Below are positions 1-51,934 of a DNA stretch of 64,000 nucleotides, piece after piece (the first letter of the stretch is position 1; each line of letters opens with the position of its first letter). The translations under genes and the position numbers were made by a program. The stretch is taken from positions 65,059,946 to 65,123,945 of the forward strand of contig OX381720.1 of assembly GCA_947462335.1 (NCBI GenBank), given 5' to 3'. The notes beneath the pieces were generated by a model. The model searched no databases, was not told the DNA's origin, and worked only from the letters and a program-made list of their open reading frames with translations. This DNA comes from Harmothoe impar (lineage: Eukaryota; Annelida; Polychaeta; Phyllodocida; Polynoidae).

Positions 1-440
1 AGTAGTATAGTATGTATCGGAACGGGACTATAGTTAAGTACTGTTTATTACTCAATCGACATGCAGCCAATCAGAGGCCTCCATTTGGTCACGTGACCCG
101 TTGCCATGGTAACGTGACCTACTTAGGGCTCTCAGCCAATCAGAAGCCAGCATTCTGGGTGACCTTCTGACCTACTTAGAAGCTCTCAGCCAATCAGAGG
201 CCGGCATTCTGGTAACCATGGTAACGTGACCTACTTACGTCACGTGACCTACTTAGGCTCAGCCAATCAGAAGCCGGCATTCTGGTAACTAGGGTAACGT
301 GACCTACTTAGGGTTTGTTTGTAAACAACACCACGTGGCTTTCTTGTTTGTAAACAACACCACGTGACACGTGACTGTTTGTAAACAAACAAACAAAAAA
401 AAGTTATGTAACTTATATATAGAAATAAAAACACAACAAG
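1..440 (+). repeat. Left terminal inverted repeat of element A
   Basis: It pairs with 10044-10463 in inverse orientation. The outer 98 bp are identical at all four ends of elements A and B. Inside lie repeated modules: CCAATCAGA (CCAAT box), CACGTGAC (E-box), CCTACTTAGG and GCATTCTGG, then GTTTGTAAACAACACCACGT copies. The inner edge is an AAATAAAAACACAACAAG stretch. In protein-primed elements the terminus is the replication origin and integrase substrate; that role is from family knowledge. Confidence 0.93.
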
Positions 441-506
441 ATAATTTCTTTTCTTTTCATTTTATTCTTTATTTTTTTCATTTTCAATCAGAAAAAACAC
501 ACAAGT

Positions 507-806
507 TTATGCTTTTTTAGCTTGCTTCTTCGATTTGCAGCAACTCAACAGGCCGCAAAGTCTCACGCCGCCGTCACTCGCACCACCACACCCCGGACGA
601 CTTCTCTCCAATAGACATTGCACGACTTTGGATAAATCCAACACCATTTCGGCAAGGCAGAGAATCTTTGCCTCCATGAAACGGCCGCCATCGCAACAAC
701 CCGTCACAACAGCATCATCGATAGCTTCTGACTCACGACCCGGTCGCTCAGCTTTGGGATTTTGCTCATGCGCATGACGCACTTCTTGGGGTTTCTTGTT
801 CGACAT
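507..806 (-). CDS. Small Cys/Lys-rich protein, unknown
   Basis: This 99-aa open frame is the last minus-strand gene of element A, next to the left terminal repeat. It begins inside the 3' end of the protease gene, overlapping it by about 100 bp in another frame. The N-terminal third is charged, the middle (about residues 45-66) could form an amphipathic helix, and the C-terminus has a CC pair followed by a Lys-rich tail (LLSCCKSKKQAKKA), as seen in some membrane-anchored or palmitoylated small proteins. T-rich DNA with TTTATT (AATAAA in minus sense) lies just downstream at about 460-475, a possible poly(A) signal for the whole block. I do not recognise a family, and the overlap leaves some doubt that it is translated. 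Confidence 0.45.
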   Translation of the reverse strand: MSNKKPQEVRHAHEQNPKAERPGRESEAIDDAVVTGCCDGGRFMEAKILCLAEMVLDLSKVVQCLLERSRPGCGGASDGGVRLCGLLSCCKSKKQAKKA

Positions 807-1156
807 GCTTCAATTAGGAAATGAACGCAATGAGGTCCACAGGTGTCAGCAGAAGTGTCTTGTAGTTGAATGCGGTTTCTTTGCCACTTGAACGGAGCAG
901 AGCGTTCCACGAAAGACAAGAACTCCGCACTCAGCGGCGGTAAGCCGAAGGAATCAAAGTAGTACACTTCACCCGTGCTCGACACGTAAAACGCCACCCA
1001 ATGCTGACCTGGTAAATGTTGCGGATCTGTGTTGCTCACGAAACAAGTGTCTTTGATAGGGTGCTTCGGAATAGTGTCACAAGAGAAAACGCCCAGGAAA
1101 CGATGTTTTGTGTGAACGTTTTCCTTCAACACTCTGCTTATTTCAAGCGTGTTCAT
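704..1156 (-). CDS. PRO: Adenovirus-type cysteine protease (Polinton PRO)
   Basis: This would be the maturation protease that cleaves capsid precursors in adenovirus-like virions. I choose the ATG at 1156, giving 150 aa; the frame is open further upstream but overlaps the capsid gene. Catalytic residues are visible: His52 in GQHWVAFYV, Asp68 in YYFDSFG, oxyanion Gln99 in QLQD and nucleophile Cys106 in DTCGPHCVHFL. The Gln-to-Cys spacing of seven matches adenain. It is about 50 residues shorter than adenovirus proteases at the C-terminus. It lies 29 bp after the major capsid stop codon, suggesting co-expression with the capsid genes. Fold assignment is strong; activity is inferred from the intact residues. 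Confidence 0.9.
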   Translation of the reverse strand: MNTLEISRVLKENVHTKHRFLGVFSCDTIPKHPIKDTCFVSNTDPQHLPGQHWVAFYVSSTGEVYYFDSFGLPPLSAEFLSFVERSAPFKWQRNRIQLQDTSADTCGPHCVHFLIEACRTRNPKKCVMRMSKIPKLSDRVVSQKLSMMLL

Positions 1157-1185
1157 ACGATACGCCAAGTACCGCCGTCTTGTCT

Positions 1186-2475
1186 TCAGTTCATGTGGTA
1201 GTCGGTGACGGGGTGTCGATCTCGGGTCAGCTCGACGACGTTGTCGTACACCAAGTAGAGTAGCACCGTTGTTGTCGCTTGTAGCGCCGAGCGGAAACTG
1301 ACTTCCACCCTCAGCTGACCCGCTCTTATAAGGTTCACGCGACACCCGTCGTGCGATCTGTCTGGGGTTAAGTCGAGGGGGAACACCGTGTAACCGTTCA
1401 GGAATTGTTCGTATGAAATACCGCAAGAGCGCGCGCCCTCCGTGTGTAGCGCCAAGTACTCTCTCACGGCCGCTTTGGTCTTAAAGTCGGGCACGTAGGC
1501 GTCGTTCGGCACTTTCTGATCGTTCACTATCACTTGAAGCGAGCTGATGTCGTAATGCTTCATCTCGAACGGGTTCTTGGTGTAGCTACCGTTGAAGGCG
1601 TCGTGGTCAAGGAAGCAAATCATCATCGACTTGGGAAGCTGGCCTGTGTTGGAGTGCGTGTAGCTGTGATCTCTGTTACCTTGAGGGATGGCGTAGGTCG
1701 TCACCTCCACTCTGTTCACCGGGTAGTCGAAGGGCCCGTGTTCTATCACCGCTCTCTCGTGCGTTTCCGCTACAGCGTCCGCCACCAGCACGCGTCGCAC
1801 GTAGAGCTTTGCTTTGTAGATCTTCAAGCTGTAGCCTCCGTCAGCGGCGCACATCAGATAGAAAGAGGGCGCCGCTTGTTTCAGAGTGAGATTGATTTCT
1901 GTCTCTCCAACGATGAGCTTCGGTTGATGAGCCAGGTCAAAGTGCAGTCGCGCCATCAGCGAAAAGCGCTTGTTGGAGATTAGCTTCTTGCGCGCTTTGT
2001 ACCCCGCATTCGCGTCAGTCAACGTGTCAAACTGACCGGGCGTATCTTCATGCCACCCCTGGGCGCTCATGACGCCGTCCTTCACGTCTTTGTTGTAGTT
2101 GAGTAACCCTTCCAAGTAAGCTCGGTAAGGGTAGGTCTCGGTGTTGCCAGACACTTTGAAACCGCCGATGGAGACTTGGACGTCTTTGAAGAGCGAGTGA
2201 GCCAAGTTGTTCACCGGAGCTACCGCGTCGGTGTCCTCGATCGCCGCTCCGTCCTTTAGCACTTGACATTCCAGATGAAGGTAATTCTCGTTCAGGTCTG
2301 TGTACTCTTGCGACTTGTTGATGGTGAAATTTATGTTACCTCCATCCTCTAAAGAGTTTTTTGTTTCTATCCCCAGGAAAGACGACTTTAAGATAGTAGT
2401 CTGAGTCGGCGCTACGGTGTGCAGGTCGAGCTCAGAGAGCGCGCACTCGTTACTGCTCTCGTGTACGTAAGCCAT
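1186..2475 (-). CDS. MCP: Major capsid protein, double jelly-roll (Polinton PY)
   Basis: This 429-aa protein starts at an ATG in a good context (AACACAATGG). It has the conserved Polinton capsid signature: an N-terminal MAYVHESSNECALSELDL block, then HSLFKDVQVSIGG and NTETYPYRAYLEGLLNY, a region widely annotated in invertebrate genomes as 'F54H12.2-like'. This family is the predicted double jelly-roll hexon equivalent that forms the icosahedral shell. The frame is intact from end to end, with no stop or shift. A TATA element lies about 55 bp upstream on the minus strand. It sits between the small basic protein gene and the protease. Family assignment is from motif recognition and is confident. 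Confidence 0.9.
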   Translation of the reverse strand: MAYVHESSNECALSELDLHTVAPTQTTILKSSFLGIETKNSLEDGGNINFTINKSQEYTDLNENYLHLECQVLKDGAAIEDTDAVAPVNNLAHSLFKDVQVSIGGFKVSGNTETYPYRAYLEGLLNYNKDVKDGVMSAQGWHEDTPGQFDTLTDANAGYKARKKLISNKRFSLMARLHFDLAHQPKLIVGETEINLTLKQAAPSFYLMCAADGGYSLKIYKAKLYVRRVLVADAVAETHERAVIEHGPFDYPVNRVEVTTYAIPQGNRDHSYTHSNTGQLPKSMMICFLDHDAFNGSYTKNPFEMKHYDISSLQVIVNDQKVPNDAYVPDFKTKAAVREYLALHTEGARSCGISYEQFLNGYTVFPLDLTPDRSHDGCRVNLIRAGQLRVEVSFRSALQATTTVLLYLVYDNVVELTRDRHPVTDYHMN

Positions 2476-2530
2476 TGTGTTCTCTCTTCATGCGGCCGAC
2501 AGACTGACGCCGGCCGCCTCCAGTCTTTTT

Positions 2531-2537
2531 ATTTATA
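2531..2537 (-). promoter_or_regulatory. TATA element upstream of the capsid gene
   Basis: On the minus strand the sequence reads TATAAATAAAAAGACTGGAG, about 55-60 bp before the capsid ATG. The TATA-plus-AAAAGACTG arrangement recurs at 8683-8690 and, in looser form, before the ATPase gene at 7583-7600. I infer a capsid-gene core promoter inside the otherwise tightly packed block. Confidence 0.5.
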
Positions 2538-2554
2538 CCTGAACGCCTAGGCGC

Positions 2555-2980
2555 TTACCGGTCGAATACATCCCCTCTACGTCTCTTGCAAGAGCCACCG
2601 CCCGTCTGAGGAGAATGCCGGCGACGTTTCGACCCTTTCTTAGACGCGACAGGCGTCTTTCCTCCCGAGAACGCCGTACTCGCCAGTCTCTTCAGAGCGC
2701 CTGCGCCTCGGTCTTTCACGCTGCTCTTTAAAGTCCGACCCGCCAGCACATCTTTAGCTACGCCCACACCGGCGCGGAGCAGCGTTTTTCCCACCGACTT
2801 CAATAGCGGGGTAGCCGAGCGCATCAGACCTAACAGAGCGCCGCCTAAACCGTGCCCGCTCTGGAAAGAGCGCCCGCTGTACACGTTGACGCCGTTGCCC
2901 AGCTGCGCGTTGTAGTAATCGCTGTACCCTCTGCCGACGGTGTGCCTGGGTGGAAAGTACGGAACGCGTTGACGCATCAT
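2555..2980 (-). CDS. Small basic Polinton virion-associated protein (putative)
   Basis: This 141-aa protein lies between the minor and major capsid genes. The N-terminus is Tyr/Gly-rich with the block GRSFQSGHGLGGALLGLM (about residues 36-53), followed by a predicted amphipathic stretch (ATPLLKSVGKTLLRAGVGVA). The C-terminus is strongly basic with two Lys/Arg clusters (KKGSKRRRHS and CKRRR), which could bind DNA or act as nuclear signals. I recall this SGHGLGG-type protein in the same position in other animal Polintons. By position and composition it resembles adenovirus minor virion or core proteins such as VI or X, but I cannot show homology. The frame is intact. Confidence 0.7.
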   Translation of the reverse strand: MMRQRVPYFPPRHTVGRGYSDYYNAQLGNGVNVYSGRSFQSGHGLGGALLGLMRSATPLLKSVGKTLLRAGVGVAKDVLAGRTLKSSVKDRGAGALKRLASTAFSGGKTPVASKKGSKRRRHSPQTGGGSCKRRRGDVFDR

Positions 2981-2991
2981 TTTTCTCTCTT

Positions 2992-4110
2992 TCAGCGCTC
3001 AATAGGTCTCAGATGAAGTGTCACGGTCACCTCGCCTCTACCGAATGGGATGGAATGACCGGATCGGTCTCTTAAATAGATGCCGACCTCGGTAAACCTC
3101 TTGGATTTCAAGGGGAAATAATCCAAATGGGGAAAACTGATAGCTTGCACGCCACCTCGACGCTTTCCGCCTCTGTCCACCGCCACGCAGCGCAACAGCG
3201 GCACTTGCATGTCGCCCACACGTCTCTCCTGGATCATGTCGGTGTATATGTACACAGAGTGCACGTCCCCGTAAACATCCATCGAGTAGGCGCCGGTAGT
3301 CGGCGACGCGAAACACGTCTTCTCTCCGAAGCCTAGAACGCATGCGAGATGCTGACTCAGCAGGACAGCACAGTGTCTCGGCGGTTTGATGGTGACGCGT
3401 TTCGTCTTGGCGTCGTACGATAAGATCCGCATCGGTTTGAGCAAGAAGCTGTCGCCCTCTAGTCTGTCATCTCGCAACGTCTCACTCAAGCGCTCGATTA
3501 GGGTGTGGTTGCTTCCGGTGAAAATAGGAGGTATCTCGAATATGTTTGGCATGAAACTGCGCACTCCCATGTCCTTCTCCATCTTTTCGATCATCTGTCT
3601 TGCTTGATGGCTGATCGTCTTCTTCTTCACCGCCGGGGACAAGAACTGCTTGTATACGGCATTCGTCTGTCTCAAGTCGACCTCTCTCTTGAACCTTTTT
3701 GTTTCCGGTTTCAATTGCTGCTCTTCCGACGTGTCTGATATCTCTTCCACCGTTACATAGCTCGCTTCCTTCCAGTTCAGCGGGAATTTTGAGCTGAACG
3801 TTAGCTTGCTCAGACCGTTCGCGTTTTTCATTCTCTTCCAGTCTACCTGTGGTTTTTTTCCTTCGGAGAATTTAGTTTCTTTTAAAACCTGGATCGCCTC
3901 CTCTAGCGAACCTTTGGTGCGCAGAGGAACAACGATGATCAAGTCGTCGTCGTGCACGTTAGTCCATTCTGTAGGGAGGATGATCTCAGTCAGAGCCGCT
4001 TCGTACGCTTCGGGCAGAAGGAGCGGCGAGTCGAAGTGAGTTCGGAAAGACGTCAAGCTGTTGTCAGGATAATACTCCATAGAGCTGTTGCTAGGTAGAG
4101 TGATGTTCAT
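2992..4110 (-). CDS. mCP: Minor capsid protein, penton-like (Polinton PX)
   Basis: This 372-aa protein matches the Polinton minor capsid family, predicted to form a single jelly-roll at the capsid vertices. The N-terminal block YYPDNSLTSFRTHFDSPLLL followed by EAALTEIILPTEW is typical. The C-terminal half carries VYIYTDMI, the FPHLDYFPL block and a final strand with GRGEVTVTLHLRP. Length is close to the family norm and the frame is intact. The ATG at 4110 is preceded by an A-tract of more than 20 nt broken by one T. It lies 21 bp after the integrase stop codon and 11 bp before the small basic protein gene. Function is from family knowledge. Confidence 0.87.
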   Translation of the reverse strand: MNITLPSNSSMEYYPDNSLTSFRTHFDSPLLLPEAYEAALTEIILPTEWTNVHDDDLIIVVPLRTKGSLEEAIQVLKETKFSEGKKPQVDWKRMKNANGLSKLTFSSKFPLNWKEASYVTVEEISDTSEEQQLKPETKRFKREVDLRQTNAVYKQFLSPAVKKKTISHQARQMIEKMEKDMGVRSFMPNIFEIPPIFTGSNHTLIERLSETLRDDRLEGDSFLLKPMRILSYDAKTKRVTIKPPRHCAVLLSQHLACVLGFGEKTCFASPTTGAYSMDVYGDVHSVYIYTDMIQERRVGDMQVPLLRCVAVDRGGKRRGGVQAISFPHLDYFPLKSKRFTEVGIYLRDRSGHSIPFGRGEVTVTLHLRPIER

Positions 4111-4131
4111 TTTTTTATTTTTTTTTTTTTT

Positions 4132-5268
4132 CTACGTTATTTTTTTGACGGGGATCCACTCGTTGAACTTGTCGTCGTAACCTAACCAACGTACGAAAGC
4201 TAACTCTTTACCGTCGACGGTCTTGCGGCGCAACACCTCGTCTATCAGGTAGTTGTTGTCGTAACGACTCTTGTACACCTTCTGAACCTCTTCCGGGTAG
4301 AAGACGCCTTTTATCTCCTCGCCCTTGTCGTCTTTCAGCTCGAACCCTCTGCTTCCCAACGTCTTAGCAACGTCGACCACTTCCTCGCGCCAGTTTCCCT
4401 CGTACCCTTTGTCGAAGGCGCCTTTAGTTCTCAACATCCTCACTCTGTCACCCGGAGCGATGACGTCGACGGCGGACGTCTTTGTTTTTTTCTTCTTTTT
4501 CCATATTTCGTCGATTTGTTTGTTAGTTGGGAGATCTTGTCGGTAGAAAACTGTTTCGCTGTTTTCCGAGCTGACTTGAGCCGGCGCCATTTTCAACGTC
4601 TTGTGGTGAGTGCGATTGTAAGAAGACACTACATGGTGCAGTACGTCTACGTAGCGATACGTGCGCTTGTGTGTGAAATAACGCCACAGCTTCTCCTTCA
4701 GACTGCGGTTCAAGCGCTCCACTAGACTAGCTTTGATGTCGTCGTTCTCGCCAGTGAAGAACTCTATGCCCTCGCTCTTCAAGTGATCTTGAAAGATCTT
4801 GTTCAAAAACTCTTTCCCCTTGTCTGTCTGAACAGTGCGCGGTCGTCTCTCGCCAGTGCCTGTCATCTCTCGGAAGGCCTCGGTGACATCAGCGCCGCTC
4901 TTGGATTTAATGGGAACGGCCCACGCGTACCTAGAGAAAACGTCGATCGCCGTCACCACGTACCGGAAGCGGTCGTTGTGAGACGCCAAAGCTTGCATGT
5001 CCATCAGATCTATCTGCCACTGCTGATCGATTGCGCCGGTTATAGTCTTGTTCCTTGCGAATTTTCTCCGAATGGGTTTATGTTTAGTGTAGGCGTCCAG
5101 CGACACTAAAGCATCTCGGATGACGGCTGGGTTCAGGTGGCGAAAATGATGTTTCTGGAGTTTAGTCACGCTAGTGAAACTGGAGGGCGCTTTGACGTCG
5201 GTATATCTAGCTACTACGCGCTTCTTTTCTTTTTCCTTCTTGGTCAGTCTCTTCACTGGTTTGCCCAT
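4132..5268 (-). CDS. INT: Retroviral-type integrase with C-terminal chromodomain
   Basis: This 378-aa DDE integrase would insert the element and make the 6-bp target duplication. The catalytic core starts near residue 82: Asp87 in WQIDLMDM, Asp149 in VQTDKGKEF and Glu184 in VERLNRSLKE. The C-terminal 45 residues (IDEVLRRKTVDGKELAFVRW onward) form a chromodomain, as in other Polinton integrases. I do not see an HHCC zinc-binding pattern in the N-terminal 80 residues, which are instead Lys/Arg-rich. The ATG at 5268 (CCACCATGG) overlaps the end of the upstream gene by 16 bp. All key residues are present, so it may be active. It is the only integrase in either element and is the obvious candidate to mobilise element B in trans. 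Confidence 0.93.
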   Translation of the reverse strand: MGKPVKRLTKKEKEKKRVVARYTDVKAPSSFTSVTKLQKHHFRHLNPAVIRDALVSLDAYTKHKPIRRKFARNKTITGAIDQQWQIDLMDMQALASHNDRFRYVVTAIDVFSRYAWAVPIKSKSGADVTEAFREMTGTGERRPRTVQTDKGKEFLNKIFQDHLKSEGIEFFTGENDDIKASLVERLNRSLKEKLWRYFTHKRTYRYVDVLHHVVSSYNRTHHKTLKMAPAQVSSENSETVFYRQDLPTNKQIDEIWKKKKKTKTSAVDVIAPGDRVRMLRTKGAFDKGYEGNWREEVVDVAKTLGSRGFELKDDKGEEIKGVFYPEEVQKVYKSRYDNNYLIDEVLRRKTVDGKELAFVRWLGYDDKFNEWIPVKKIT

Positions 5269-6415
5269 GGTGGGCTTGTTGAGGGCGTGAACGACGAGCT
5301 CGCCGCTAGGCGGTTGCGCCCTTTCCTTTTCTTACGCGGCACGCTCCTATAGGAAGTCGGAGTTTGGAAAAGTTCACGGTCGTCCTCCTCGTCTTCAGAG
5401 GATTGATCGTCCACCACCTGGAGAGAAGAGTCTGCTGCTGCTACTGCTGCTGCTGCTGCTGCTGCTTCTCCTTCTTCCGAGTCGAAGCTCGGTCGTTTCC
5501 GACCTCTGTCAGCAAGCCGTGTGTCCAAACTTTGGCCAGGTCCGCTCGCTTTATACAGATGGTTTCCGATCAAGGAGTCTGTGGGAACTGCTTCGCGCAG
5601 CGCTTTCGTGAACGGCGAGTAGCCCGCCGGTCTGGGCGCCGTCTTCCTGAACCTGGCGGCGTCGTTCAGTAAGTCCACTATGTTGATGCGACGCTCAGGT
5701 GGTATTCTCCGACCCGACATCTCGCGCACCGCACCGTCCTCGTTCCACTTGATCACACCGGATTTCTCCAATTGTTTGTACAGCGCCACGGTCCGAGTGC
5801 GATTCCTCTTGGGAACTTGGTTCACCAACCGCTCGAGTAGGGACGCGCTGGCCTCTTCAGCAGACTGACGGAGGTGAGCCGGGGGCGAAGAAGAGTAGGA
5901 CGAAGAGATGTTGCTGTTGTGGGGATTCGCGAGAAAAAATTGCAATCTATTCAACAACCTTCGGTATTTCAACATTTTCTCGCGCGATTCCAAAGTGGGG
6001 TCGTTCAACACTAAATCCAAGTCCCTGTAGATAAACTGTAGCACCTGGTGCAAGGCCGCGTCGGGATGAAGGGACTGTTCTGCCTGCTTGTGGCAGGAGC
6101 GGAACTCTCGTTCTTTTCAGTGCGCTCATCAGGAAGAGGAGGAAGGTTTGGAGCAGTAGAAGTACTAGCAGCAGCGACTGCAGTAGTAGCAGCGCTAGTA
6201 GTAGCAGCAGCAGCGGGCACATGATGAAGTAGACCTGCTCGTGATGATTTGTAGAGCGTCTCAGGATCCACGAGCGCTAAACGTTTGTAGTGTTGTTGCT
6301 GCTCTGGGTCCGTCATGGGGACGACGGTGGCAATGACGCTGGTGGTGGCGGTAGTGGTGGTGGTGGTGGTGGTGGTGGTGCTGTCGGCGAGTAGGTGTCG
6401 AATGAGGTGTCTCAT
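5253..6415 (-). CDS. Conserved uncharacterised Polinton protein, apparently frameshifted
   Basis: Two overlapping minus-strand frames appear to be one gene. The first (6415-6011) has a poly-Thr tract and an LVDPETLYKSS block. The second (open to a stop near 6121, down to 5253) has a helical region, then VPKRNRTRTVALYKQLEKSG, IKWNEDGAV and INIVDLLNDA, then an Ala run, an acidic SSEDEEDD patch and a basic tail. I recall LVDPETL-like starts and VDLVND-like domains within single proteins of other Polintons, which suggests a -1 change of frame between about 6105 and 6123; I see no canonical slippery heptamer there. The first ATG overlaps the previous stop as ATGA; an alternative start lies at 6316. 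Function is unknown. Confidence 0.6.
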
Positions 6416-6744
6416 ATACGGAGAATGCTCTTTATAAGCGGTAAGGCCATCCCTATGAGAGCCGGAATGAGGAAACCTCCCTCTTGTACCAAGACGCGTC
6501 TCTTTTTTTTGATGGGCGTAGATTTTTTGCCGACCTCCCTCAACACGTCAGCCGATTCTCGAAGCTTGTCCAGTTGTTTGTCGCTGAGCGGGATGTTCCC
6601 TACCAGTAAATTGTGACAGATCTCACTTAACGCTGCGATCAGATCGTCGCTTCCAGAGTCTATTAGATGCGAGCAGTCCTTTGGCGAGCACTTAGCTAAG
6701 TGCTTGAGAGTACCAAAGTGTCTTTCGAGTAGATGAGAAGACAT
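6412..6744 (-). CDS. Small conserved protein with hydrophobic C-terminus
   Basis: This 110-aa protein is wedged between the ATPase gene (8-bp gap) and the next gene (4-bp ATGA overlap). The N-terminal two thirds are helical and charged. Then come a basic cluster (about residues 74-83, KKSTPIKKKRR) and a C-terminal hydrophobic segment (GGFLIPALIGMALPLIKSIL). I recall this arrangement, a basic stretch then GGF and a hydrophobic tail, as a common small protein of animal Polintons next to the ATPase. The tail suggests membrane interaction, perhaps in entry or assembly as for adenovirus protein VI, but this is a guess. Its ATG follows a run of eight A residues. Confidence 0.72.
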   Translation of the reverse strand: MSSHLLERHFGTLKHLAKCSPKDCSHLIDSGSDDLIAALSEICHNLLVGNIPLSDKQLDKLRESADVLREVGKKSTPIKKKRRVLVQEGGFLIPALIGMALPLIKSILRI

Positions 6745-6752
6745 TTTTTTTG

Positions 6753-7472
6753 CTACTGCTTTCTCTTGTTCTTTTTTTTGTCTAGCGGTACGAACACTAG
6801 CTGAGAGTGTATGGACGTCAAAGAGGAGCGTATTCTCAGATCGTCAGGTGTTGACTGCTTGAAGTCCAGAAGGAGGTATGAGTGAGGTCGCTTGAGTTCA
6901 TGGGTAAATATACTAGAGAGGGCCGCCGCGTTGGACGGAAACACCTGGCGAGACAGACTAGCTATTTGCCCCATGTCGCGCGGGTTCTTGAAAACGATCA
7001 TGTAGTGAGCGTTCAGACTCATAGTTCGAAAGTCGGGTGATTTCTGGAATAGGTTCTGAGTGATGTATATGACGCTCACGTTCCAGTGATGCGAGTATTT
7101 AGTAAAGATGTCGGCTACCACTTGCTGATTGGAACTGCTCATCAGATCGTCCAATATCAGTAGAGTGTGGGGTCGTAAAGCGTCTTCTGCTACTTCCACG
7201 TCTCCCGCTATAGACTCTTTGCTAGGAAGACCTTCTCTGAATTCCACACCGTACTGATTTTGCATTTTTTCAAACAGAGGTTGCCACTCGCCGTAATGGT
7301 AAAAAGTCTTTTCCACCGGCGGCGTGACCAAATTGTTCACGTCGCTCAGAAATTGATCCACCAAGCGCGATTTTCCACAACCCGACGGACCGCTAATGAT
7401 ACAACTAAAGGGTCCTTGTAGTCGAGCGTCGAAATGAATTTCTGTGAAGAGTTTGCTTTTACTACTGGACAT
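6753..7472 (-). CDS. ATP: FtsK/HerA-type genome-packaging ATPase
   Basis: This 239-aa P-loop ATPase belongs to the A32-like packaging family found in Polintons and many double jelly-roll viruses, where it drives DNA into the capsid. Walker A is GPSGCGKS at residues 28-35; Walker B is LLILDDLM with Asp108/Asp109; a TQN motif (about residue 145) fits the family's conserved polar residue after the Walker B strand. The frame is intact and of normal length. The ATG at 7472 follows an almost pure A leader (two runs of nine to ten A split by one C). It is the first gene of the main minus-strand block, preceded by a TATA-like element at 7583-7600, so it may lead a long transcript covering the downstream genes. 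Confidence 0.92.
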   Translation of the reverse strand: MSSSKSKLFTEIHFDARLQGPFSCIISGPSGCGKSRLVDQFLSDVNNLVTPPVEKTFYHYGEWQPLFEKMQNQYGVEFREGLPSKESIAGDVEVAEDALRPHTLLILDDLMSSSNQQVVADIFTKYSHHWNVSVIYITQNLFQKSPDFRTMSLNAHYMIVFKNPRDMGQIASLSRQVFPSNAAALSSIFTHELKRPHSYLLLDFKQSTPDDLRIRSSLTSIHSQLVFVPLDKKKNKRKQ

Positions 7473-7582
7473 TTTTTTTTGTTTTTTTTTCAGGACGCGT
7501 CAGAGAGCGGTTGTGTGTCTGACTGTCTGCTGTGTTTCTCACTCGAACGGTCGGTAGTGAATGGTTGTGGAGAAAAGTCAGC

Positions 7583-7600
7583 CGACCTTTTTATTGATAC
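7583..7600 (-). promoter_or_regulatory. TATA-like element before the ATPase block
   Basis: The minus strand reads GTATCAATAAAAAGGTCGGC about 120 bp upstream of the ATPase ATG. It resembles the capsid-gene promoter (TATAAATAAAAAGACTGGAG) in spacing and in the AAAAAG core. Inferred promoter; no direct proof. Confidence 0.35.
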
Positions 7601-7679
7601 CGGCCGGTGTCACAGTAGCGGCGGCAGAAGTGACTTTTTTTTGCGATAAAATTCTATTTTCACTCAATAGTCATAAATG

Positions 7680-7712
7680 TTTGTATCAGACTCCAGAGGA
7701 GTCTGATACAAA
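7680..7712. other. Perfect 15-bp hairpin followed by T-rich run
   Basis: The arms TTTGTATCAGACTCC and GGAGTCTGATACAAA pair perfectly around a three-base loop (AGA). The plus strand continues into a run of T after a short AT stretch. It sits between the ATPase promoter and the convergent-looking end of the next minus-strand gene. It could be an RNA processing, termination or cruciform site. Confidence 0.7.
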
Positions 7713-7725
7713 TATTTATTTTTTT

Positions 7726-7770
7726 TTAAAAAAAGAAGAAGAGGAGGAGGAGGAGGAGGAGGAGGAGGAG

Positions 7771-7809
<39 letters not shown>

Positions 7810-8466: not shown

Positions 8467-8574
8467 ATTTCTTTCCTCCGAAACAAAAAAGACTGAGTGA
8501 AAATAAAAATTTAAGAAAACAAAAAGCTCAAAGAAAAAAAATAAGCAATAAGCAGACTCAGCTCGAAATTCCCT

Positions 8575-43255: not shown

Positions 43256-43291
43256 TTTGTCTCTTTTAAGAAAGAAAAAGATTTTCAATCG

Positions 43292-43333: not shown

Positions 43334-43462
43334 TCGTGTTTTTTTTTTGTTTATCACGTGCTGCGATGAGGCGATCAGCTGCGACTGGAGGAAGTGACAC
43401 TTTAAGAGATCGCGCGTCTTAATTGTTATGATATATATATTTTTTTTTTTTTTTTTTACTTA

Positions 43463-44256: not shown

Positions 44257-44272
44257 CTTGTCTCGTCTTGGC

Positions 44273-44279
44273 GGCGGCA

Positions 44280-44315
<36 letters not shown>

Positions 44316-44340
44316 GTGGTGGTGGCGGTGGTGGTGGTAG
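44273..44340. repeat. GGC/GGT triplet repeat in leader
   Basis: About 22 GGC, GGT or GGA triplets lie between the death-domain ATG and its TATA element, as in element A at 8575-8655. Confidence 0.9.
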
Positions 44341-44393
44341 TAGCCGTTACTGGGGTCAGAGGCGATATGTTTTTTTTCCAACAGAAATGAGAG

Positions 44394-44403
44394 CTTTTTA
44401 TAC
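44394..44403 (-). promoter_or_regulatory. TATA box of the death-domain gene
   Basis: The minus strand reads TGTATAAAAAGCTCTCATTTC, about 140 bp upstream of the ATG at 44256 and pointing away from the plus-strand TATA at 45291. Confidence 0.55.
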
Positions 44404-44429
44404 AGAGGGAGTTTAATCCCATTTCCAAC

Positions 44430-45290
44430 AGCGCTCCAGCTGTCTAGCGCCCTGTCCGCATGACGCTTTTTCAGCCGCTCCGCTCCTTAAGAGCTTAGAT
44501 GACGAGGGGGTGTGGCATCGCTATCCGTGGAGACCAGCTGAAAACGGTGTTTTTTCTCACTCATAGCCTTAATACCTCCTACCCCCTACCCGAGGACGTC
44601 TCCCTCCCTCTGACATTCATTGTAACAAACGTCAGAGGTCAGGTGAAAATCGGATTTTTTTTCATGCACAGCCTTAGGCAGCTGTCACCCCTCCCTATTG
44701 AACTAGCCGGCCGCCCGCTCCGCCTGGCCGGCCCGGTCTACTCACCACGGCAGGAGGTGGCGATTTTTGTCTTACACTTAAGTCGCTCACCACATGCACA
44801 CGCCTCTACTCACAGACAGACACGTTCGTCTTAGGGGGTCCTGCTTCACGCCACACGCCTCCTGTAGTTTTTTTTTGTATACACACTGTAAGCTCATCAC
44901 CGTTACCGTTAATCCTTTATACAGCTAACGCGCGCTGAATGGCTGAACAGGGTGGTAAGCGGCTTAGCTCACCACAGTGGATCCCTCAAAAAGGGATCCA
45001 GCTGAAAACGTCATACCTTATGTCTTTGTGAATGGCCGCCGCCGGTCAGTCGACGGCAGGCAGCAACCGCTTAACCCTTTATACAGCTAATGCGCGTTGA
45101 ATTGCTGAACAGGGTGGTAAGCGGCTTAGCTCATCATCACAGTCGATCTCTCAAAAGAGGGGGGGGAAAGGGATCCAGCTGAAAACGTCATGCCTTATGT
45201 CTTTTTGTTTCTCTTTGTGAATGGCCGCCGGCCAGCCGGCGGCAGCTGAACAGGGTCGGTAAGTAGCTTAGCTCTAGAAGCGAGAAGGCG
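44430..45290. promoter_or_regulatory. Divergent control region of element B with tandem duplication
   Basis: There is no convincing gene (the plus-strand frame 44499-44834 looks random). A block of about 150 bp is duplicated (44924-45060 and 45085-45240). Each copy holds GTGGTAAGCGGCTTA (44952, 45114), GGGATCCAGCTGAAAACGTC (44994, 45170) and a GGCCGCCG-rich part; a third degenerate TAAGTAGCTTA copy is at 45257. The first two motifs have exact 15-bp matches in element A. Confidence 0.7.
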
Positions 45291-45298
45291 TATATAAG
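45291..45298 (+). promoter_or_regulatory. TATA box for the PC4-like/polymerase block
   Basis: GTATATAAGGGGCTTGGAAACC lies 68 bp before the ATG at 45359; it is nearly the same as the promoter of the Ala-rich gene in element A. Confidence 0.72.
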
Positions 45299-45358
45299 GG
45301 GCTTGGAAACCTCCATTCACTCACTCATTCTTTTTTGCTGCTCTCTACAGTCACCACC

Positions 45359-46939
45359 ATGAGCAAAAGACAACAGCTAGCGGCGTTCAAGAACAAGAAG
45401 ACTACGCGGAACAGCGTTCGTTTAGCGTCAGTGCCTGCTCTTGCTACTGAACATGAGACTACCGCCGCAGCCGGTTGGTCTTATCACCCTCCTGCTGTAG
45501 CGAGCGCTCGCGGCAGTAGTAGTAGTAGTAGTAGCAGTAGCACTAGTAGTAGCAGTAGTAGTAGTAGTGGTAGTAGTACTAGTAGTACTACTGGTAGCAG
45601 TCGTCGTGCTAGCGACGTTGTTACACTCGCGACGGTACACGTTGCTGCTAAGCGCGCTGCCGCTGCTACCGCCGTCCCGCCTGCCGCTGCTGCTGCTGCT
45701 GCTGCTGCTGCTGCGCCTGCTACTGCTGCGCCTGCTACGGCTGCGCCTGCTGAGGCTGCTGCTGCGCCTGCTACTGTTGCGTCTGCTGCGGCTGCTGCTG
45801 CGGCTGCTTCTGCTGCACCTGCTGCTACTGCTACTACTACTGACGACAACGCTCCTGGCACAGCGCAGTACTGGCAACCGGGTTTTTACCTCCCCACTAC
45901 TGTTGATGACTTTGATGACCTGCCGCACGTTGCACAGCCCCTCTCCTCCACCACTACATCGACGGACGCCCTCGACGCCGCTCGCGCTGAGAGTTACAGC
46001 TATTCGGACACTCAGCCCCTGAACCGAGAAGAAGAGGAGGAGGAGGAGCAGCAAGAGGGTGAGACAGAGAACGACGCTGACGACGAGGCGTACGAAGAAC
46101 CCGAAGGGCAAGGGGTGAGCGGTACGTTTTTCGGCTTCCCTCTTCGACCTTTCGACCTCACTTCCTCCACTGCTAGCGCCCCCCCGTCCGGTCCGTGGCG
46201 ACTGCCCTCACCGCCACCTTACGAGGGCGGCGGCGGCGCTTCATCTTCTACCGCTACACACAGCACGGACGGCGTGTGGCTGCGCTGTTCCAACAACGAG
46301 ACCTCCGATACCACCAGCGCTGACGCTGCTCCTGCTATCGGTTCTGCTGCTGATTCAGCTCACGCTGATGGTGTTACTCATCCTGCGGGTGTGAAACGTT
46401 CTAAGGTGAGTTCCAGAACAACAAGGCCCACTAAGAAGAGAAAAATACAAGAAAAAGAAGGAGATGGACGAGAAGAAGCAGAGAAAACACTCGGGTTAGA
46501 GTTCTGCTTAGACGGAGCTTTGACGCTGGAGATCTGGGAGGACGTGGCTAGACTGTCTAGGAGGCCGCGCTACACAAAAGACGGCCAGGTGAAAGAGGCG
46601 TCTCTGACCAGAAGCAAGCGAGTGCACTTCACGGCCGACGCGCTGCGCGAGCTCATAGCACGCATCGCCGATATCCGCGCAGTGGTGCGCATACGCGACA
46701 CAGCGGCCGCGCAAGGAAAACCTAATCACACCCCCTGGTTCGCAGTGCTGGATGAGGCGGGCGAAGTGTACGCAGCTGTGAGCTACTACAGCGGTAAGAA
46801 CCTCGTCCACGTGCGCAAGTACGAAGGTCCTGACAAAAAACCCACACAGCAGGGGGTGACGCTGTCCGCCAGAGCGCTCAAAGAGTTGGATGACAAAACA
46901 GAGATCATTCTGAAATATCTCGGCATAGATTCGGAATGA
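45359..46939 (+). CDS. PC4-like (putative ssDNA-binding) protein with Ala/Ser-rich N-terminus
   Basis: The ATG at 45359 has a strong context (CACCACCATGAG) and gives 526 aa. Residues about 40-165 are Ser, Thr and Ala runs from AGT and GCT triplets. An acidic Glu run (about 223-230) and a basic nuclear-signal-like stretch (TRPTKKRKI, about 360) follow. The last 150 residues hold two related segments, about 378-450 (YTKDGQVKEASLTRSKRVHF) and 460-522 (YYSGKNLVHVRKYEGPDKKP then QQGVTLSARALKEL). The second fits the PC4/Sub1 pattern: beta strands, K-x-P, basic G-V-T-L, helix. PC4 proteins bind single-stranded DNA, so a replication role beside the polymerase (like adenovirus DBP) is plausible; terminal protein is the alternative. 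Both are inferences. Confidence 0.62.
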   Translation: MSKRQQLAAFKNKKTTRNSVRLASVPALATEHETTAAAGWSYHPPAVASARGSSSSSSSSSTSSSSSSSSGSSTSSTTGSSRRASDVVTLATVHVAAKRAAAATAVPPAAAAAAAAAAAPATAAPATAAPAEAAAAPATVASAAAAAAAASAAPAATATTTDDNAPGTAQYWQPGFYLPTTVDDFDDLPHVAQPLSSTTTSTDALDAARAESYSYSDTQPLNREEEEEEEQQEGETENDADDEAYEEPEGQGVSGTFFGFPLRPFDLTSSTASAPPSGPWRLPSPPPYEGGGGASSSTATHSTDGVWLRCSNNETSDTTSADAAPAIGSAADSAHADGVTHPAGVKRSKVSSRTTRPTKKRKIQEKEGDGREEAEKTLGLEFCLDGALTLEIWEDVARLSRRPRYTKDGQVKEASLTRSKRVHFTADALRELIARIADIRAVVRIRDTAAAQGKPNHTPWFAVLDEAGEVYAAVSYYSGKNLVHVRKYEGPDKKPTQQGVTLSARALKELDDKTEIILKYLGIDSE

Positions 46940-46967
46940 GAGACGCTCAACGCTCACGCGCGCACAC

Positions 46968-47105
46968 ACACACAGCGTTTGACGTACGCTGTATGAGACA
47001 GACAGACAGACAGACAGACGGATACACAGACAGCAGACAGAAAGATAGTTACATAGACGACAGATTGATAGATGGCTAGATAGATAGATAGATAGTTAGA
47101 CGGCT
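46968..47105. repeat. GACA and GATA microsatellites between PC4-like and polymerase genes
   Basis: Short CACA, CAGA and TAGA runs fill the 195-bp gap. No TATA box is clear here, so the polymerase may share the upstream promoter. Confidence 0.75.
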
Positions 47106-47134
47106 AAGTAGTTGGTAACCGAGTGAAAAAAAAC

Positions 47135-50100
47135 ATGACACAGTACGTATGCGAAAAGTGTTTCAAAATGTTTAAAAGAGCGTACAACCACGAGAGACAC
47201 GTAGAAAATTGTAGAGTAGTAGCTAAGTTTTGCCCTCTATGCGGCGAAGGGGATTGCCGAAAGAGCGCTTGTCGACGCGAATCTCTGGACGGGGTGACCG
47301 TCCCTCCGCGCATATGTGCTGTACCGAACGGGGAGGAAACGTTCACGGCGAATTGGCCTGCGATACAAACGGGCGTCAGGATGCACGGGACTCGCGTGAG
47401 TGTAACAAACTTCAGGCTACCAACCGGCGAGTTGAGTGACGCTGTAGATACTATGCGTCGCATTCACTTGACACAAAGATTCAGATACAAAGTGGGTTTC
47501 TCGGTAGGCTTACTGTTACAACACAGAGAAGACAAGAGCAAACTGCGCTACTTCCACGCCTCCCAGAACAACGCAACTCTCATACAACCGCTCCCTACTG
47601 TAACTAATTCAGAAACTTTGGAAGAGCTCCTCTCAAAGATGCAAAACACCGTCGCTTGCGAGGAGGTACGGAAACTTTGCGACGCTGACACCAAGTGGCA
47701 CGTTCTTTTTCCTACCAATTTGAACATCTGCGTTTACATGGGACCGGGGGAATTCCCCATAGGCGGTAGGATCACTCAGGCCGGTCGAGTTGGAAAGAGA
47801 AGCGGCGTGTTAGATTTTCCCAACAAGGACAACCTCTGCATCTTCCGCTGCATTTCCTTTCACTTATACAACACCAGCAAGCGCGCTTCAGATTTGTTAC
47901 GTCAGTTCTGTCCCGCTGCCACACCTGAATCCTTTCCGGGTCTGAACATCCGCGACTTACCCGCGTTAGAGAACTTGTTTGACGTACAAATAGCGGTTTA
48001 CACCGCGTCGCGTCAAGTGCCGGGGCGGAAGTTGAGAAGACGCGTTACTCTGATCAGACCGCCTTCCAGAACTGTGGCCGCCCGAGGTAAAGTCAACCTA
48101 CACCTGACGGCGAAAGGCGGTTTGCACGTCTCTCTCGTCACGGACTTCAACGCGTACGCGGGCATATACGAATGTTGCAAGTGTAAGGCGGCGTTCACCA
48201 CCGAGTTCTTGCTGAAGCGACACAGGAACCAGCTTTCCTCTTGCCGACAAGTCAAGTTGCGCTACGTAGGTGGCATCTACCAAAATTCGAGAACGATTTT
48301 CGAAGCGCTAGCAGACTTCTCCATTTTTCCCCCCGACGGACATTCCGGAATCTACCCTTACAAGATCGCCTTCGATTTCGAGGCTTTCTTCAGACCGTGC
48401 AAAGAACCGTCGACGGAGCACGTGTCCCTGCTGTGGGATCACGTCCCTTTGTCGGCTAGCGTCGCATCCGACTTTCCGGGGTGGGAGGGGCCCGTCTGCT
48501 TCGTCAGAGCGTCCGACGCAGATTCCGACCCCTTGTTGGACCGAGTTTTAAATCACATAAACGAGAACGCCAAAGCGATCGGGGAAGCTGTGCTAGAACT
48601 TTACCGACCGACGTTAGCGAAGTTAGATGCGGCGATAGGTGAAGCTCTCCTGCTGGAGGAGGCGACGTTCACCACCCCTTCTCCAGGCGGCTTCGCTGCG
48701 GCTCAGACCAGACACCCGTTAGTTCAACTGAAGAAGCGTCTTCTGAGATACATCCGTCAAGCTCCAGTGGTGGGCTTCAACTCGGGGCGTTACGACTTGA
48801 ACCTGATCAAAATACGCCTTCACTCGTTCTTCGCCTCCGGAGACCGAAGAAACCAAGAATTCAGCGTCATAAAGAGAAGCAATCAATACTTGGCGGTTTA
48901 CACACAGCACACGGTTTTCTTGGACGTAGTCAACTATTTGGCACCCGGTTACAACTACGCGACCTATTTGCGAGCTTTCACCAGGAACGAAGAGAAAGGT
49001 CACTTTCCTTACGAATGGATGACGTCTACCAGGAAACTGGCAAACAGAACGCTGCCGCCGAGATCGGCTTTCGACAGCGAGCTGACGGGCGTCAAAATGT
49101 CCGAATCCGACTACGCCGCATGTCAGAAAGTTTGGTCCGACGAGAAGATGCAAACTATGGAAGACTACTTGATCCACTACAACAACAAAGACGTGAAACC
49201 TTTCATAGAAGCTCTGAAAAATCACGCTAAATTTTTCCAAGATCGCGGCATCGACATGTTGAAAGACGGAGTTTCTCTCGCCGGTTTGACTTTACGCTTC
49301 CTCTTCCAAAACCTAGAAGACGCGTTCACAACGTTTCCCCAGTTCGACGCCGTCCTCCACGCTCTGATCAAAGAGAATCTAGTCGGCGGTCCTTCCATCA
49401 TCTTCCATAGATTTCACGAGAAGGGCACCACGCGGATAAGGGAGCACAAGTACGGCGAAGAAGCGAGACCGTGCCAACACATCCTAGGACTAGACGCTAA
49501 CTCTCTGTACTTGCGCTGCATGAGCGAAGCGCACTGCACGGGCTATTACGCGGTGAGACGGCCCGAGACCGAGTTCAAGCCCGAAATCAGGCAAAGAAAC
49601 TCTCACAGCGCTTTGGAGTGGTTACGCTTCGTAGAGCACGACCGCGACGTGAAACTGCGCCACGCTCTGAACGGCGGCGAGATGGCGGTAGGCTGTCGGA
49701 GAATTCGCGTGGACGGATTTCACGCGGCCTCTAATACGGTTTTCCAGTTTCACGGGTGTTGGTTCCACGCTCACGAGTGCATACCGTCGCACCGATATCA
49801 GTGCGCTTCACTGAGAGAGGAGAGACGCGACAGAACGACCAGAGTAAGCGCTTACTTGAAAGCGTTAGGTTACAAGCTGGTCGTCGTGTGGGAGTGCGAA
49901 TGGCGAGAGATGAAGCGTCGAGATGAGCGGGTCAAGGCCTCCCAACAACGCTGGAAGGTTGACGCTTTGAAAGTGTCTCGAAACGCGATGAGCGAGAGCG
50001 ACATCCTTTCCGCTGTGAAAGAGGAGAAAATGTTCGGTTTAGTTCAAGTGGACATCACTACGCCGCCTCACCTACGAGAGTACTTCGAAGAAATGACCCC

Positions 50101-51262
50101 CGTTTTCAAGAACGCGACCGTTTCAAAATCGGACATAGGCCCTCACATGTCAGACTTTGCGCAGGAAGAAAAGCTGTTGAACACGCCTCAGAGATGTCTG
50201 ATAGGGAGTTACCACGGAAAAAATATTCTCTTGGGAACGCCGCTTCTCAAGTGGTATTTAGAGCACGGTTTGATAGTCACCAAAGTGCAGCTGGTGGTAG
50301 AATACCTACCTAAACGCTCCTTTGCCGGTTTCGCGGACGAAGTGACGGCGGCGCGAAGACGTGGCGACGTGAACGAGAACGAGAAAATTCTGTCAGACTG
50401 TTACAAGTTAATGGGAAACGCTACGTACGGTAAAACAATCTGCAACAAAGAAAAACACACGGCGGTGAGATACACTGACAGTCGGAAGTTCGAACTATTG
50501 GCCAATTCGTGGCGCTTCAAAAAGGCGTCCGAGTTGACTTCCGATCTGTTTGAAGTCGAACTACAACCGAAAACGGTCAAGAACAACCTCCCTATTCAGA
50601 TAGGGTTCATGGTATACCAGTACGCGAAGTTGAAAATGTTAGAGTTCACATACGACTTCTTGGATAGATTCGTCGATCGGCGCGATTATGCCCTTTGTCA
50701 AATGGACACCGACAGTCTTTACATGGCTCTCAGCGGTGCCACGTTGGATGACCTAGTGAAACCTCGCCTGAGAGAGACGTACTTCAGAGAGAAACGAAAG
50801 TGGCTTCCGACAGCGGTGTGCGACGAGCACTTAGAGCTTTTCGTGAAGACAAAAACGGAAAGAGTGCGAGAATGGTGTGCGCCGCCCGGCGGATGTTGTG
50901 AGAGACGGTACCTTCACGATCTGAGAACTTCGGGGCTCATGAAAGCGGAGTGGGAAGGTGACGGGATCCTAAGTCTCAACCCTAAGACTTACATTTGCTA
51001 CGATCGAGTCAGCGACACTGGTGAAAGAAAATCCAAAAAATGGAGTGCAAAAGGCGTACAGAAGAAACAAAACCCCCAGGAACCAGACGCCTTCTTGGAT
51101 GTTCTTCGCCAACGAAAAACTCTCATTGCTGTAAATAGAAATTTCAAAGTGGTGCGAAACAAAATGGTCACCTACACCATAGAGAAAGACGGCGTGCGCT
51201 ACTTGTATTATAAGCGTCGCGTGCATTCTGACGGTGTGACAACAAGTCCTTTAGAGATATGA
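47135..51262 (+). CDS. POLB: Protein-primed family B DNA polymerase
   Basis: I choose the first ATG at 47135 (after GTGAAAAAAAAC), giving 1375 aa with no break. The N-terminus has C2H2-like zinc fingers (CEKCFKMFKRAYNHERH; a second Cys cluster; a third at about residues 347-370) and a NKDNLCIFRCISFHLY block reminiscent of OTU-type cysteine peptidase-like segments in other Polinton polymerases. Exonuclease motifs: FDFEA (about 412), FNSGRYDLN (about 547) and YNNKD (about 685). Polymerase motif A is LDANSLYL (about 786), motif B KLMGNATYG (about 1094) and motif C MDTDSLY (about 1191). Between A and B lies the FQFHGCWFH and VVVWECEW nuclease-like insertion typical of Polintons. All catalytic residues are present, so it may be active. 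It would copy A and B from their shared termini. Confidence 0.95.
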   Translation: MTQYVCEKCFKMFKRAYNHERHVENCRVVAKFCPLCGEGDCRKSACRRESLDGVTVPPRICAVPNGEETFTANWPAIQTGVRMHGTRVSVTNFRLPTGELSDAVDTMRRIHLTQRFRYKVGFSVGLLLQHREDKSKLRYFHASQNNATLIQPLPTVTNSETLEELLSKMQNTVACEEVRKLCDADTKWHVLFPTNLNICVYMGPGEFPIGGRITQAGRVGKRSGVLDFPNKDNLCIFRCISFHLYNTSKRASDLLRQFCPAATPESFPGLNIRDLPALENLFDVQIAVYTASRQVPGRKLRRRVTLIRPPSRTVAARGKVNLHLTAKGGLHVSLVTDFNAYAGIYECCKCKAAFTTEFLLKRHRNQLSSCRQVKLRYVGGIYQNSRTIFEALADFSIFPPDGHSGIYPYKIAFDFEAFFRPCKEPSTEHVSLLWDHVPLSASVASDFPGWEGPVCFVRASDADSDPLLDRVLNHINENAKAIGEAVLELYRPTLAKLDAAIGEALLLEEATFTTPSPGGFAAAQTRHPLVQLKKRLLRYIRQAPVVGFNSGRYDLNLIKIRLHSFFASGDRRNQEFSVIKRSNQYLAVYTQHTVFLDVVNYLAPGYNYATYLRAFTRNEEKGHFPYEWMTSTRKLANRTLPPRSAFDSELTGVKMSESDYAACQKVWSDEKMQTMEDYLIHYNNKDVKPFIEALKNHAKFFQDRGIDMLKDGVSLAGLTLRFLFQNLEDAFTTFPQFDAVLHALIKENLVGGPSIIFHRFHEKGTTRIREHKYGEEARPCQHILGLDANSLYLRCMSEAHCTGYYAVRRPETEFKPEIRQRNSHSALEWLRFVEHDRDVKLRHALNGGEMAVGCRRIRVDGFHAASNTVFQFHGCWFHAHECIPSHRYQCASLREERRDRTTRVSAYLKALGYKLVVVWECEWREMKRRDERVKASQQRWKVDALKVSRNAMSESDILSAVKEEKMFGLVQVDITTPPHLREYFEEMTPVFKNATVSKSDIGPHMSDFAQEEKLLNTPQRCLIGSYHGKNILLGTPLLKWYLEHGLIVTKVQLVVEYLPKRSFAGFADEVTAARRRGDVNENEKILSDCYKLMGNATYGKTICNKEKHTAVRYTDSRKFELLANSWRFKKASELTSDLFEVELQPKTVKNNLPIQIGFMVYQYAKLKMLEFTYDFLDRFVDRRDYALCQMDTDSLYMALSGATLDDLVKPRLRETYFREKRKWLPTAVCDEHLELFVKTKTERVREWCAPPGGCCERRYLHDLRTSGLMKAEWEGDGILSLNPKTYICYDRVSDTGERKSKKWSAKGVQKKQNPQEPDAFLDVLRQRKTLIAVNRNFKVVRNKMVTYTIEKDGVRYLYYKRRVHSDGVTTSPLEI

Positions 51263-51474
51263 AAAAAAAAAAAAAAAAAAATAAGCGTGTGCATCTTTTC
51301 AAAAATAGAGTGTTTATCAAGATTGAAAAAAAAATAAATAAAAAAAAATTAAAAGAAAATATTGTTGTGTTTTTATTATCATACGGCTTCTTTTACTAGT
51401 AAGTCGCGCAGTCTCTTAAAGCGTCACTCATGTGACGACGTCGCTTCCAGTCACGGGATCCTAAACAAAAAAAA

Positions 51475-51934
51475 AACTTCTTCTTCTTCCGGTCACGTGA
51501 TCAATCAGGTCGCTTCCGGTTGGCCATTAAGTCGTGTGACGTCACTTCCGGTCACGTGACTCATCAGGTCACTTCCGATCACGTGATCCTAAATTAGGTC
51601 ATATGACGTCACTTCCGGTCCCCTAAGTAGGTCAGTAGGTTACCCAGAATGCACCATCCCCTAAGTAGGTCACTTCCGGTCACCCAATGGAGGCCTCTGA
51701 TTGGCTGCAGGGTTACCCAGAATGCACCGCTAATCCCCTAAGTAGGTCACTTCCGGTCACGTGACCAAATGGAGGCCTCTGATTGGCTAACTAGGTCACG
51801 TGACGTCACCACTAATCCCCTAAGTAGGTCACTTCCGGTCACGTGACCAAATGGAGGCCTCTGATTGGCTGCATGTCGATTGAGTAATAAACAGTACTTA
51901 ACTATAGTCCCGTTCCGATACATACTATACTACT
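51475..51934 (-). repeat. Right terminal inverted repeat of element B
   Basis: Inverse of the left end: the outer 98 bp are identical, followed by ETS/CRE/E-box/CCAAT modules and a shorter GAA (here TTC) run at 51478-51490. Homology extends inward to about 51361 (ATTGTTGTGTTTTTATT), matching 43388-43490. Confidence 0.92.

What the first reader, a model, noticed from the sequence alone, without database searches (positions are those of the whole stretch)
1..51934. A bipartite (segmented) Polinton: two complementary half-elements with the same ends
Seen: A (10.5 kb) has integrase, ATPase, protease, both capsid genes and small virion-like genes; B (9.5 kb) has the protein-primed polymerase and a PC4-like protein; neither has any hallmark gene of the other. 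Both are complete TIR-to-TIR units, and their summed length (about 20 kb) is that of a normal Polinton. Inference: a split genome whose parts replicate, package and integrate together, like a two-segment virus. I do not know of a described segmented Polinton/adintovirus.
Basis: partly seen in the sequence, partly recalled or inferred. Interest (0 to 1): 0.97.

Follow-up and report, generated by a model that had tools for sequence, protein, structure and literature searches.

The report
A Polinton virus in two pieces
One family of Polintons (virus-like mobile elements) in this genome occurs as two separately inserted kinds with identical ends, one with the integrase and predicted capsid genes and the other with the DNA polymerase, repeated at many sites, so the two likely depend on each other like the parts of a segmented virus.

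Summary
Confirmed, and extended genome-wide. A (1-10463) holds integrase, protease, ATPase and a double-jelly-roll capsid gene. B (42427-51934) holds the Polinton polymerase and a weak PC4 match. Their outer 98 bases are identical and each sits between a perfect 6-bp target duplication. The host genome (1.51 Gb) lists 98 capsid, 109 integrase and 34 polymerase copies at 100% identity (capped lists). Ends were fetched for 20 A and 20 B copies: all are separate insertions with duplications; 18 A are 10,499-10,540 bp, 19 B are 9,481-9,518 bp; the exceptions are a shortened A and an A and a B with inserts. No 17-25 kb class appears among 40 terminus pairs. A and B share a diverged central promoter region, so the split is not recent. 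Surprise: a third class (C, 8.7-9.8 kb) has the same ends but no A or B gene found, and 13,855 termini exist. Replication, packaging and integration in trans are inferred.

The parts
1..10463 (-). Element A: 10,463 bp capsid and integrase half, flanked by CTTATT on both sides (left copy just outside the window)
1..392 (+). A left TIR; outer 98 nt identical to B
10072..10463 (-). A right TIR
10464..10469 (.). A right target-site duplication CTTATT
704..1156 (-). Adenovirus-type C5 cysteine protease
   Evidence: Pfam PF00770 23.7 bits, cut-off 21.3
1186..2475 (-). Major capsid protein, predicted double jelly roll (429 aa)
2555..2980 (-). Small basic glycine-rich protein, virion-like by look only
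   Evidence: open frame, no Pfam match
2992..4110 (-). Possible minor capsid (penton) gene; tentative
   Evidence: position and N-terminal look (recalled); no match, model failed
4132..5268 (-). rve integrase, weak C-terminal chromodomain (378 aa)
   Evidence: PF00665 50.2 bits
5253..5975 (-). Open frame of unknown function in the late operon
6412..6744 (-). Small open frame with hydrophobic C-terminus
6753..7472 (-). Likely packaging ATPase
   Evidence: PF02456 Adeno_IVa2 24.3 bits, cut-off 21
8467..9319 (.). Divergent promoter region, homologous to 44257-45358 of B in inverted order
9320..9955 (+). Alanine-rich open frame
   Evidence: similar low-complexity frame in class C
42427..51934 (+). 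Element B: 9,508 bp polymerase half
42421..42426 (.). B left target-site duplication GGTGGT
51935..51940 (.). B right target-site duplication GGTGGT
42427..42768 (+). B left TIR
51593..51934 (-). B right TIR
43741..44256 (-). Small gene, weak death-domain match
   Evidence: PF00531 17.3 bits, below cut-off 22.6
44257..45358 (.). Divergent promoter region of B
45359..46939 (+). PC4-like protein (526 aa)
   Evidence: PF02229 21.9 bits, below cut-off 25
47135..51262 (+). Polinton family-B DNA polymerase (1375 aa)
   Evidence: PF03175 29.8 bits, cut-off 25.8; conserved columns in alignment A1

Best explanation
A Polinton family in this genome is split into two separately inserted elements with identical 98-base ends, one (10.5 kb) with the integrase and predicted capsid, protease and packaging genes and the other (9.5 kb) with the DNA polymerase, and the two likely copy, package and insert each other. 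Shown: the complementary gene sets, the shared ends, many near-identical copies of each class, and a 6-bp duplication at every sampled insertion, including B, which has no integrase. Inferred: B's polymerase primes replication from the common terminus of both elements; A's capsid, protease and ATPase package both linear DNAs, each in its own particle or together; A's integrase inserts both by recognising the same ends. The shared, inverted, diverged central promoter suggests that A and B descend from one ancestor by duplication and complementary gene loss.
For: Genome searches: capsid 98 of 98 scored, polymerase 34 of 34, integrase 109 of 109, each printed as 100% identical over its full length without stops (all capped, lower bounds; 97 of the 98 capsid copies are five residues longer than the window's). 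Ends of 20 A copies (of 97 listed beside the window's): 18 are 10,499-10,540 bp, 17 of them with an exact 6-bp duplication and one with the duplication beside an end that lost 3 bases; the other two are 9,893 bp (shortened) and 14,369 bp (3.8-kb insert), both with duplications. Ends of 20 B copies (of 33): 19 are 9,481-9,518 bp with exact duplications; one is 12,222 bp with a 2.7-kb insert and a duplication. None of 34 polymerase copies lies within 20 kb of any of 98 capsid or 109 integrase copies (nearest 24 and 149 kb), while 32 of the 98 capsid copies have a listed integrase 2.8-3.0 kb away (all lists truncated). 40 terminus pairs: none of 17-25 kb. Six of six other polymerase loci here have integrase and capsid matches within 10 kb. 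Public contigs: the window's integrase cluster reaches at most 10,510 bp and its polymerase cluster at most 9,882 bp. Trees of polymerase, capsid and integrase place the window's clade next to contigs of the same lengths. Shared promoter: 76 bits against at most 31 in 100 block shuffles and at most 26.5 against 80 host stretches.
Against: No virion, free DNA or expression was seen. Class C shows that having these ends does not prove a needed part. B could be a satellite that replicates A, or A could use another polymerase. B-like elements at about 91% and a degenerate B variant show that the family is older and more mixed than two clean parts. The capsid, polymerase and integrase lists are capped, so a rare joined element could be missed; two of 40 terminus pairs are 13.2 and 15.9 kb and were not read, 20 of 100 listed termini are unpaired, and two of 24 probed elements could not be placed. 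Most sampled copies were classed by ends, length and marker gene; their interiors were not read.
Confidence: 0.8

Rival explanations
1. Helper and satellite: one class is the real virus or transposon with an outside partner, and the other only exploits it.
For: Class C elements share the ends and lack A and B genes, so free riders exist in this family. Other Polintons with polymerase, integrase and capsid live in the genome and could supply functions.
Against: Neither A nor B is complete: A lacks the polymerase, B lacks capsid and integrase. The stretches beside six other polymerase loci do not hold this terminus exactly. The capsid and polymerase genes stay intact and identical in every scored copy.
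Confidence: 0.12
2. Deletion derivatives: A and B are internal deletions of a full 18-20 kb element that is still present.
Against: No remnant of the missing genes in either; shared promoter blocks only about 73-77% alike while stretches of copies within a class are 98.8-99.6% alike; no 17-25 kb pair among 40; 42 of 42 elements examined fit a single class.
Confidence: 0.05
3. Two unrelated mobile families that converged on or exchanged ends by recombination.
For: Beyond 98 nt the TIRs differ in detail, and one module occurs in B's TIRs only.
Against: Several short modules are common to both TIR sets and absent elsewhere in the window; the promoter regions are homologous; the trees agree.
Confidence: 0.03

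Closest known systems
Polinton/Maverick elements and adintoviruses (one piece)
   Same: rve integrase with chromodomain, family-B polymerase, C5 protease, ATPase, double-jelly-roll capsid, TIRs, 6-bp target duplications
   Different: The known ones carry the core genes on one element (e.g. 13-15 kb Drosophila-associated adintoviruses, PMC8363768, passages seen); here they are split over two
Bidnaviruses (Bombyx mori bidensovirus)
   Same: Two linear DNA segments, Polinton-derived polymerase, TIRs; segments packed in separate capsids (PMC4061559, passages seen)
   Different: Single-stranded, parvovirus-type capsid; no integrase (recalled)
Drosophila Vesanto virus
   Same: Up to twelve segments, many with similar terminal inverted repeats, related to bidnaviruses (PMC8363768, passages seen)
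   Different: Bidna-like single-stranded DNA virus, not a double-jelly-roll integrating element
Bipartite begomoviruses (recalled)
   Same: Two genome parts that share a common control region
   Different: Circular single-stranded plant viruses, unrelated genes

Membership tests
Polinton/adintovirus | Family-B polymerase of the Polinton type | tested here: met
   in B only; PF03175 over cut-off, 39 homologues
Polinton/adintovirus | rve integrase with C-terminal chromodomain | tested here: met
   in A only; rve over cut-off; the chromodomain is below its cut-off (19.6 of 25.1 bits), precomputed for most listed relatives but not for the seven closest
Polinton/adintovirus | Double-jelly-roll major capsid protein | tested here: met
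Polinton/adintovirus | Protease and packaging ATPase | tested here: met
   in A only
Polinton/adintovirus | Penton (minor capsid) protein | tested here: inconclusive
Polinton/adintovirus | TIRs and 6-bp target duplication | tested here: met
Polinton/adintovirus | All core genes on one element | tested here: not met
   window pair read in full; 40 further copies fit one half by ends, length and marker gene
Segmented virus | Parts with complementary essential genes and common ends | tested here: met
Segmented virus | Parts replicate and are packaged together | not testable with these tools
   needs virion or free DNA
Bidnaviridae | Parvovirus-type capsid and superfamily 3 helicase | not tested
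   no such Pfam match among the frames scanned, but no dedicated search

The most novel reading that the evidence does not exclude
An integrating, segmented double-stranded DNA virus of the Polinton lineage with at least three classes of segment sharing one terminus: A (capsid and integrase), B (polymerase) and C (8.7-9.8 kb, alanine-rich frame and long repeats, third segment or size-matched satellite). Packaging holds most segments near 9-10.5 kb, and the family has filled roughly 4% of the host genome.
Probability: 0.5. Interest if true: 0.97.

Novelty: new variant of a known kind. Interest (0 to 1): 0.93.

Why it matters
Polintons sit at the base of many eukaryotic DNA viruses. A split one would show that a genome of this lineage can become segmented, as bidnaviruses did with a borrowed Polinton polymerase. 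Thousands of termini and near-identical copies mean the process was very recent or is going on, so virion DNA could be sought directly. The narrow size classes, including gene-poor C, would make packaging limits and trans-integration of Polintons testable.

Tried and rejected
Deletion-derivative and chance explanations were tested and judged unlikely. IMG/VR scans with polymerase, capsid, both alignments and the 33-nt terminus found no relative. The GTDB scan found two polymerase fragments, on contigs labelled as a tubeworm endosymbiont, probably host DNA. The 98-nt DNA search of the genome gave 0 candidates, although the window itself holds four copies; the tool skips common words, so this is no evidence. 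A PDB profile search with the capsid alignment gave only ribonucleases (best E 0.0033, no stretch passing by itself in the top rows), judged false; the polymerase profile matched only Vsr endonucleases in one region. The single-sequence model of the possible penton failed. No Rfam or tRNA hit. Literature: searches (listings, plus passages of PMC8363768, PMC11071296, PMC12220804, PMC11071308 and PMC4061559) showed no segmented Polinton; the adintovirus paper PMC8502044 is not held, and most subscription papers and preprints are missing from the library. The host species was not identified.
Full report
Observation. The window holds two complete TIR-bounded elements: A (1-10463) and B (42427-51934). 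Their TIRs are 392 and 342 nt at 99%, and the outer 98 nt are identical in all four ends. The 33-nt tip occurs four times and never in 100 shuffles. B is inserted in a 66-bp minisatellite with an exact GGTGGT duplication, and six array units still show the exact 30-nt empty site. A starts at window base 1; the left flank fetched from the host genome ends in CTTATT and the right flank starts with CTTATT.

Genome-wide test. The window lies on contig C20 of a 1.51-Gb genome in 736 contigs. The capsid protein rings at 98 scored places, the integrase at 109 and the polymerase at 34, each printed as 100% identity over its full length without stops; all three lists are capped. 97 of the 98 capsid copies are five residues longer than the window's. 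I fetched both ends of 20 A copies out of 97 listed beside the window's, and of 20 B copies out of 33. 18 of 20 A copies measure 10,499-10,540 bp: 17 have an exact 6-bp duplication, and one has the duplication next to an end short of three bases. 19 of 20 B copies measure 9,481-9,518 bp with an exact duplication. The three copies whose second end was not in the first stretch were followed up: an A of 9,893 bp (shortened inside), an A of 14,369 bp with a 3.84-kb stretch unlike A or B, and a B of 12,222 bp with a 2.72-kb stretch unlike A or B, all three with duplications. So 42 of 42 elements, the window pair included, fit one class only; the 40 others were classed by ends, length and marker gene, and their interiors were mostly not read. 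The stretches of copies that were compared over 0.8 kb or more are 98.8-99.6% identical to the window's A or B. None of the 34 polymerase copies lies within 20 kb of a listed capsid or integrase copy (nearest 24 and 149 kb), whereas 32 of 98 capsid copies have a listed integrase 2.8-3.0 kb away as in A (truncated lists).

The ends. The 33-nt tip with up to two mismatches occurs 6,924 times forward and 6,931 times reverse, against none for the reversed control. That would be about 6,900 elements, or roughly 67 Mb and 4% of the genome if nearly all pair up and the mean length is near 9.7 kb (rough estimate). Only the first 100 places are listed, all on the first 5.25 Mb of C1. They form 40 pairs and 20 single ends: 28 pairs of 8,728-9,881 bp, 10 of 10,344-10,537 bp, and single pairs of 13,245 and 15,926 bp; none of 17-25 kb.

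A third class. I probed 24 of those 40 pairs by central stretches (6 of 3 kb, 18 of 401 nt), mostly choosing sizes that do not fit A. One is A, eight are B (four at about 99% or more, one at 97.8%, three at 90-92%), two are a B variant (in the one read over 3 kb the polymerase gene lacks residues 39-435), eleven belong to class C, and two could not be placed. C shares the 98-nt terminus and a CAGTAG duplication in the one copy read throughout. That copy matches none of 13 A and B proteins and has a 366-aa alanine-rich frame; C centres hold long internal repeats. The likeness of the alanine-rich frame to A's 9320-9955 frame is low-complexity and weak evidence. C may be a third segment or a satellite; its size near A and B fits a packaging limit (inference).

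Contrast and origin. Six other polymerase loci in the same genome, picked by hand from 129 matches, all have integrase and capsid matches within 10 kb of the polymerase, and the fetched stretches do not hold this terminus exactly; whether they are six distinct families was not tested. Among public proteins, contigs of 12,657, 16,628 and 17,632 bp recur with the same length in the polymerase and integrase searches, the first also in the capsid search, so these nearest relatives (44-55% identity) are probably in one piece (contig names are not shown). The polymerase, capsid and integrase trees put the window's clade beside these same relatives (in the capsid tree only the 12,657-bp one is present). 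For the window's own clusters the longest public contigs are 10,510 bp (integrase) and 9,882 bp (polymerase). A and B share two collinear, inverted blocks in the central intergenic region (72.6% over 175 columns, 76.9% over 91) and a third, low-complexity one; the best scores 76 bits, against at most 31 in 100 block shuffles and 26.5 against 80 host stretches. Several short modules are common to both TIR sets and absent elsewhere in the window, while one is B's alone. The simplest history is duplication of a one-piece ancestor followed by complementary loss, long enough ago for the promoter to diverge, then a recent burst of both halves.

Mechanism. By what is known of these families (recalled), the polymerase primes from the terminus with a protein, the ATPase packages, and Polinton integrases leave 6-bp duplications. 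B has no integrase yet is inserted with 6-bp duplications 21 of 21 times, so integration in trans is a strong inference; replication of A by B's polymerase and packaging of both by A's proteins are inferences from the shared ends. A helper-satellite relation cannot be excluded, but neither half is complete.

Novelty. Bidnaviruses have two segments packed in separate capsids and a Polinton-derived polymerase (PMC4061559, passages), and Vesanto virus may have up to twelve segments (PMC8363768, passages). Seven searches of the held library showed no segmented Polinton. It meets the gene and insertion criteria of a Polinton but fails 'all core genes on one element', so I call it a new variant of a known kind.

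Noticed in passing
G000:C1:649809-659630 (L116, L110, L117) and other C1 elements: Third class C with the same ends, an alanine-rich frame and long internal repeats but no A or B genes found; 11 of 24 probed elements.
   Followed up: partly
L111 (C1:785032-794817), L120: B-derived variant, about 74-89% to B in places; in L111 the polymerase gene lacks residues 39-435.
   Followed up: partly
L118, L123, L126: B-like elements only 90-92% identical to the window's B over 401 nt: perhaps a second B lineage with the same ends.
   Followed up: no
window 8467-9319 and 44257-45358: Homologous divergent promoter regions in A and B, in inverted order.
   Followed up: yes
window 1186-2475: The window's capsid gene codes five residues fewer than the 97 other scored copies.
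   Followed up: partly
window 43741-44256: Weak death-domain match in B, perhaps a modulator of host cell death; below Pfam's cut-off.
   Followed up: no
L098-L109: Six other Polinton loci in the same genome, each with polymerase, integrase and capsid close together.
   Followed up: partly
window 20265-21499, 26860-28115, 40923-42545, 60991-63974: Many long minisatellite arrays in the host sequence.
   Followed up: no
L001, L002: Polinton polymerase fragments on contigs labelled as a bacterial endosymbiont of the tubeworm Escarpia laminata, likely host contamination.
   Followed up: no
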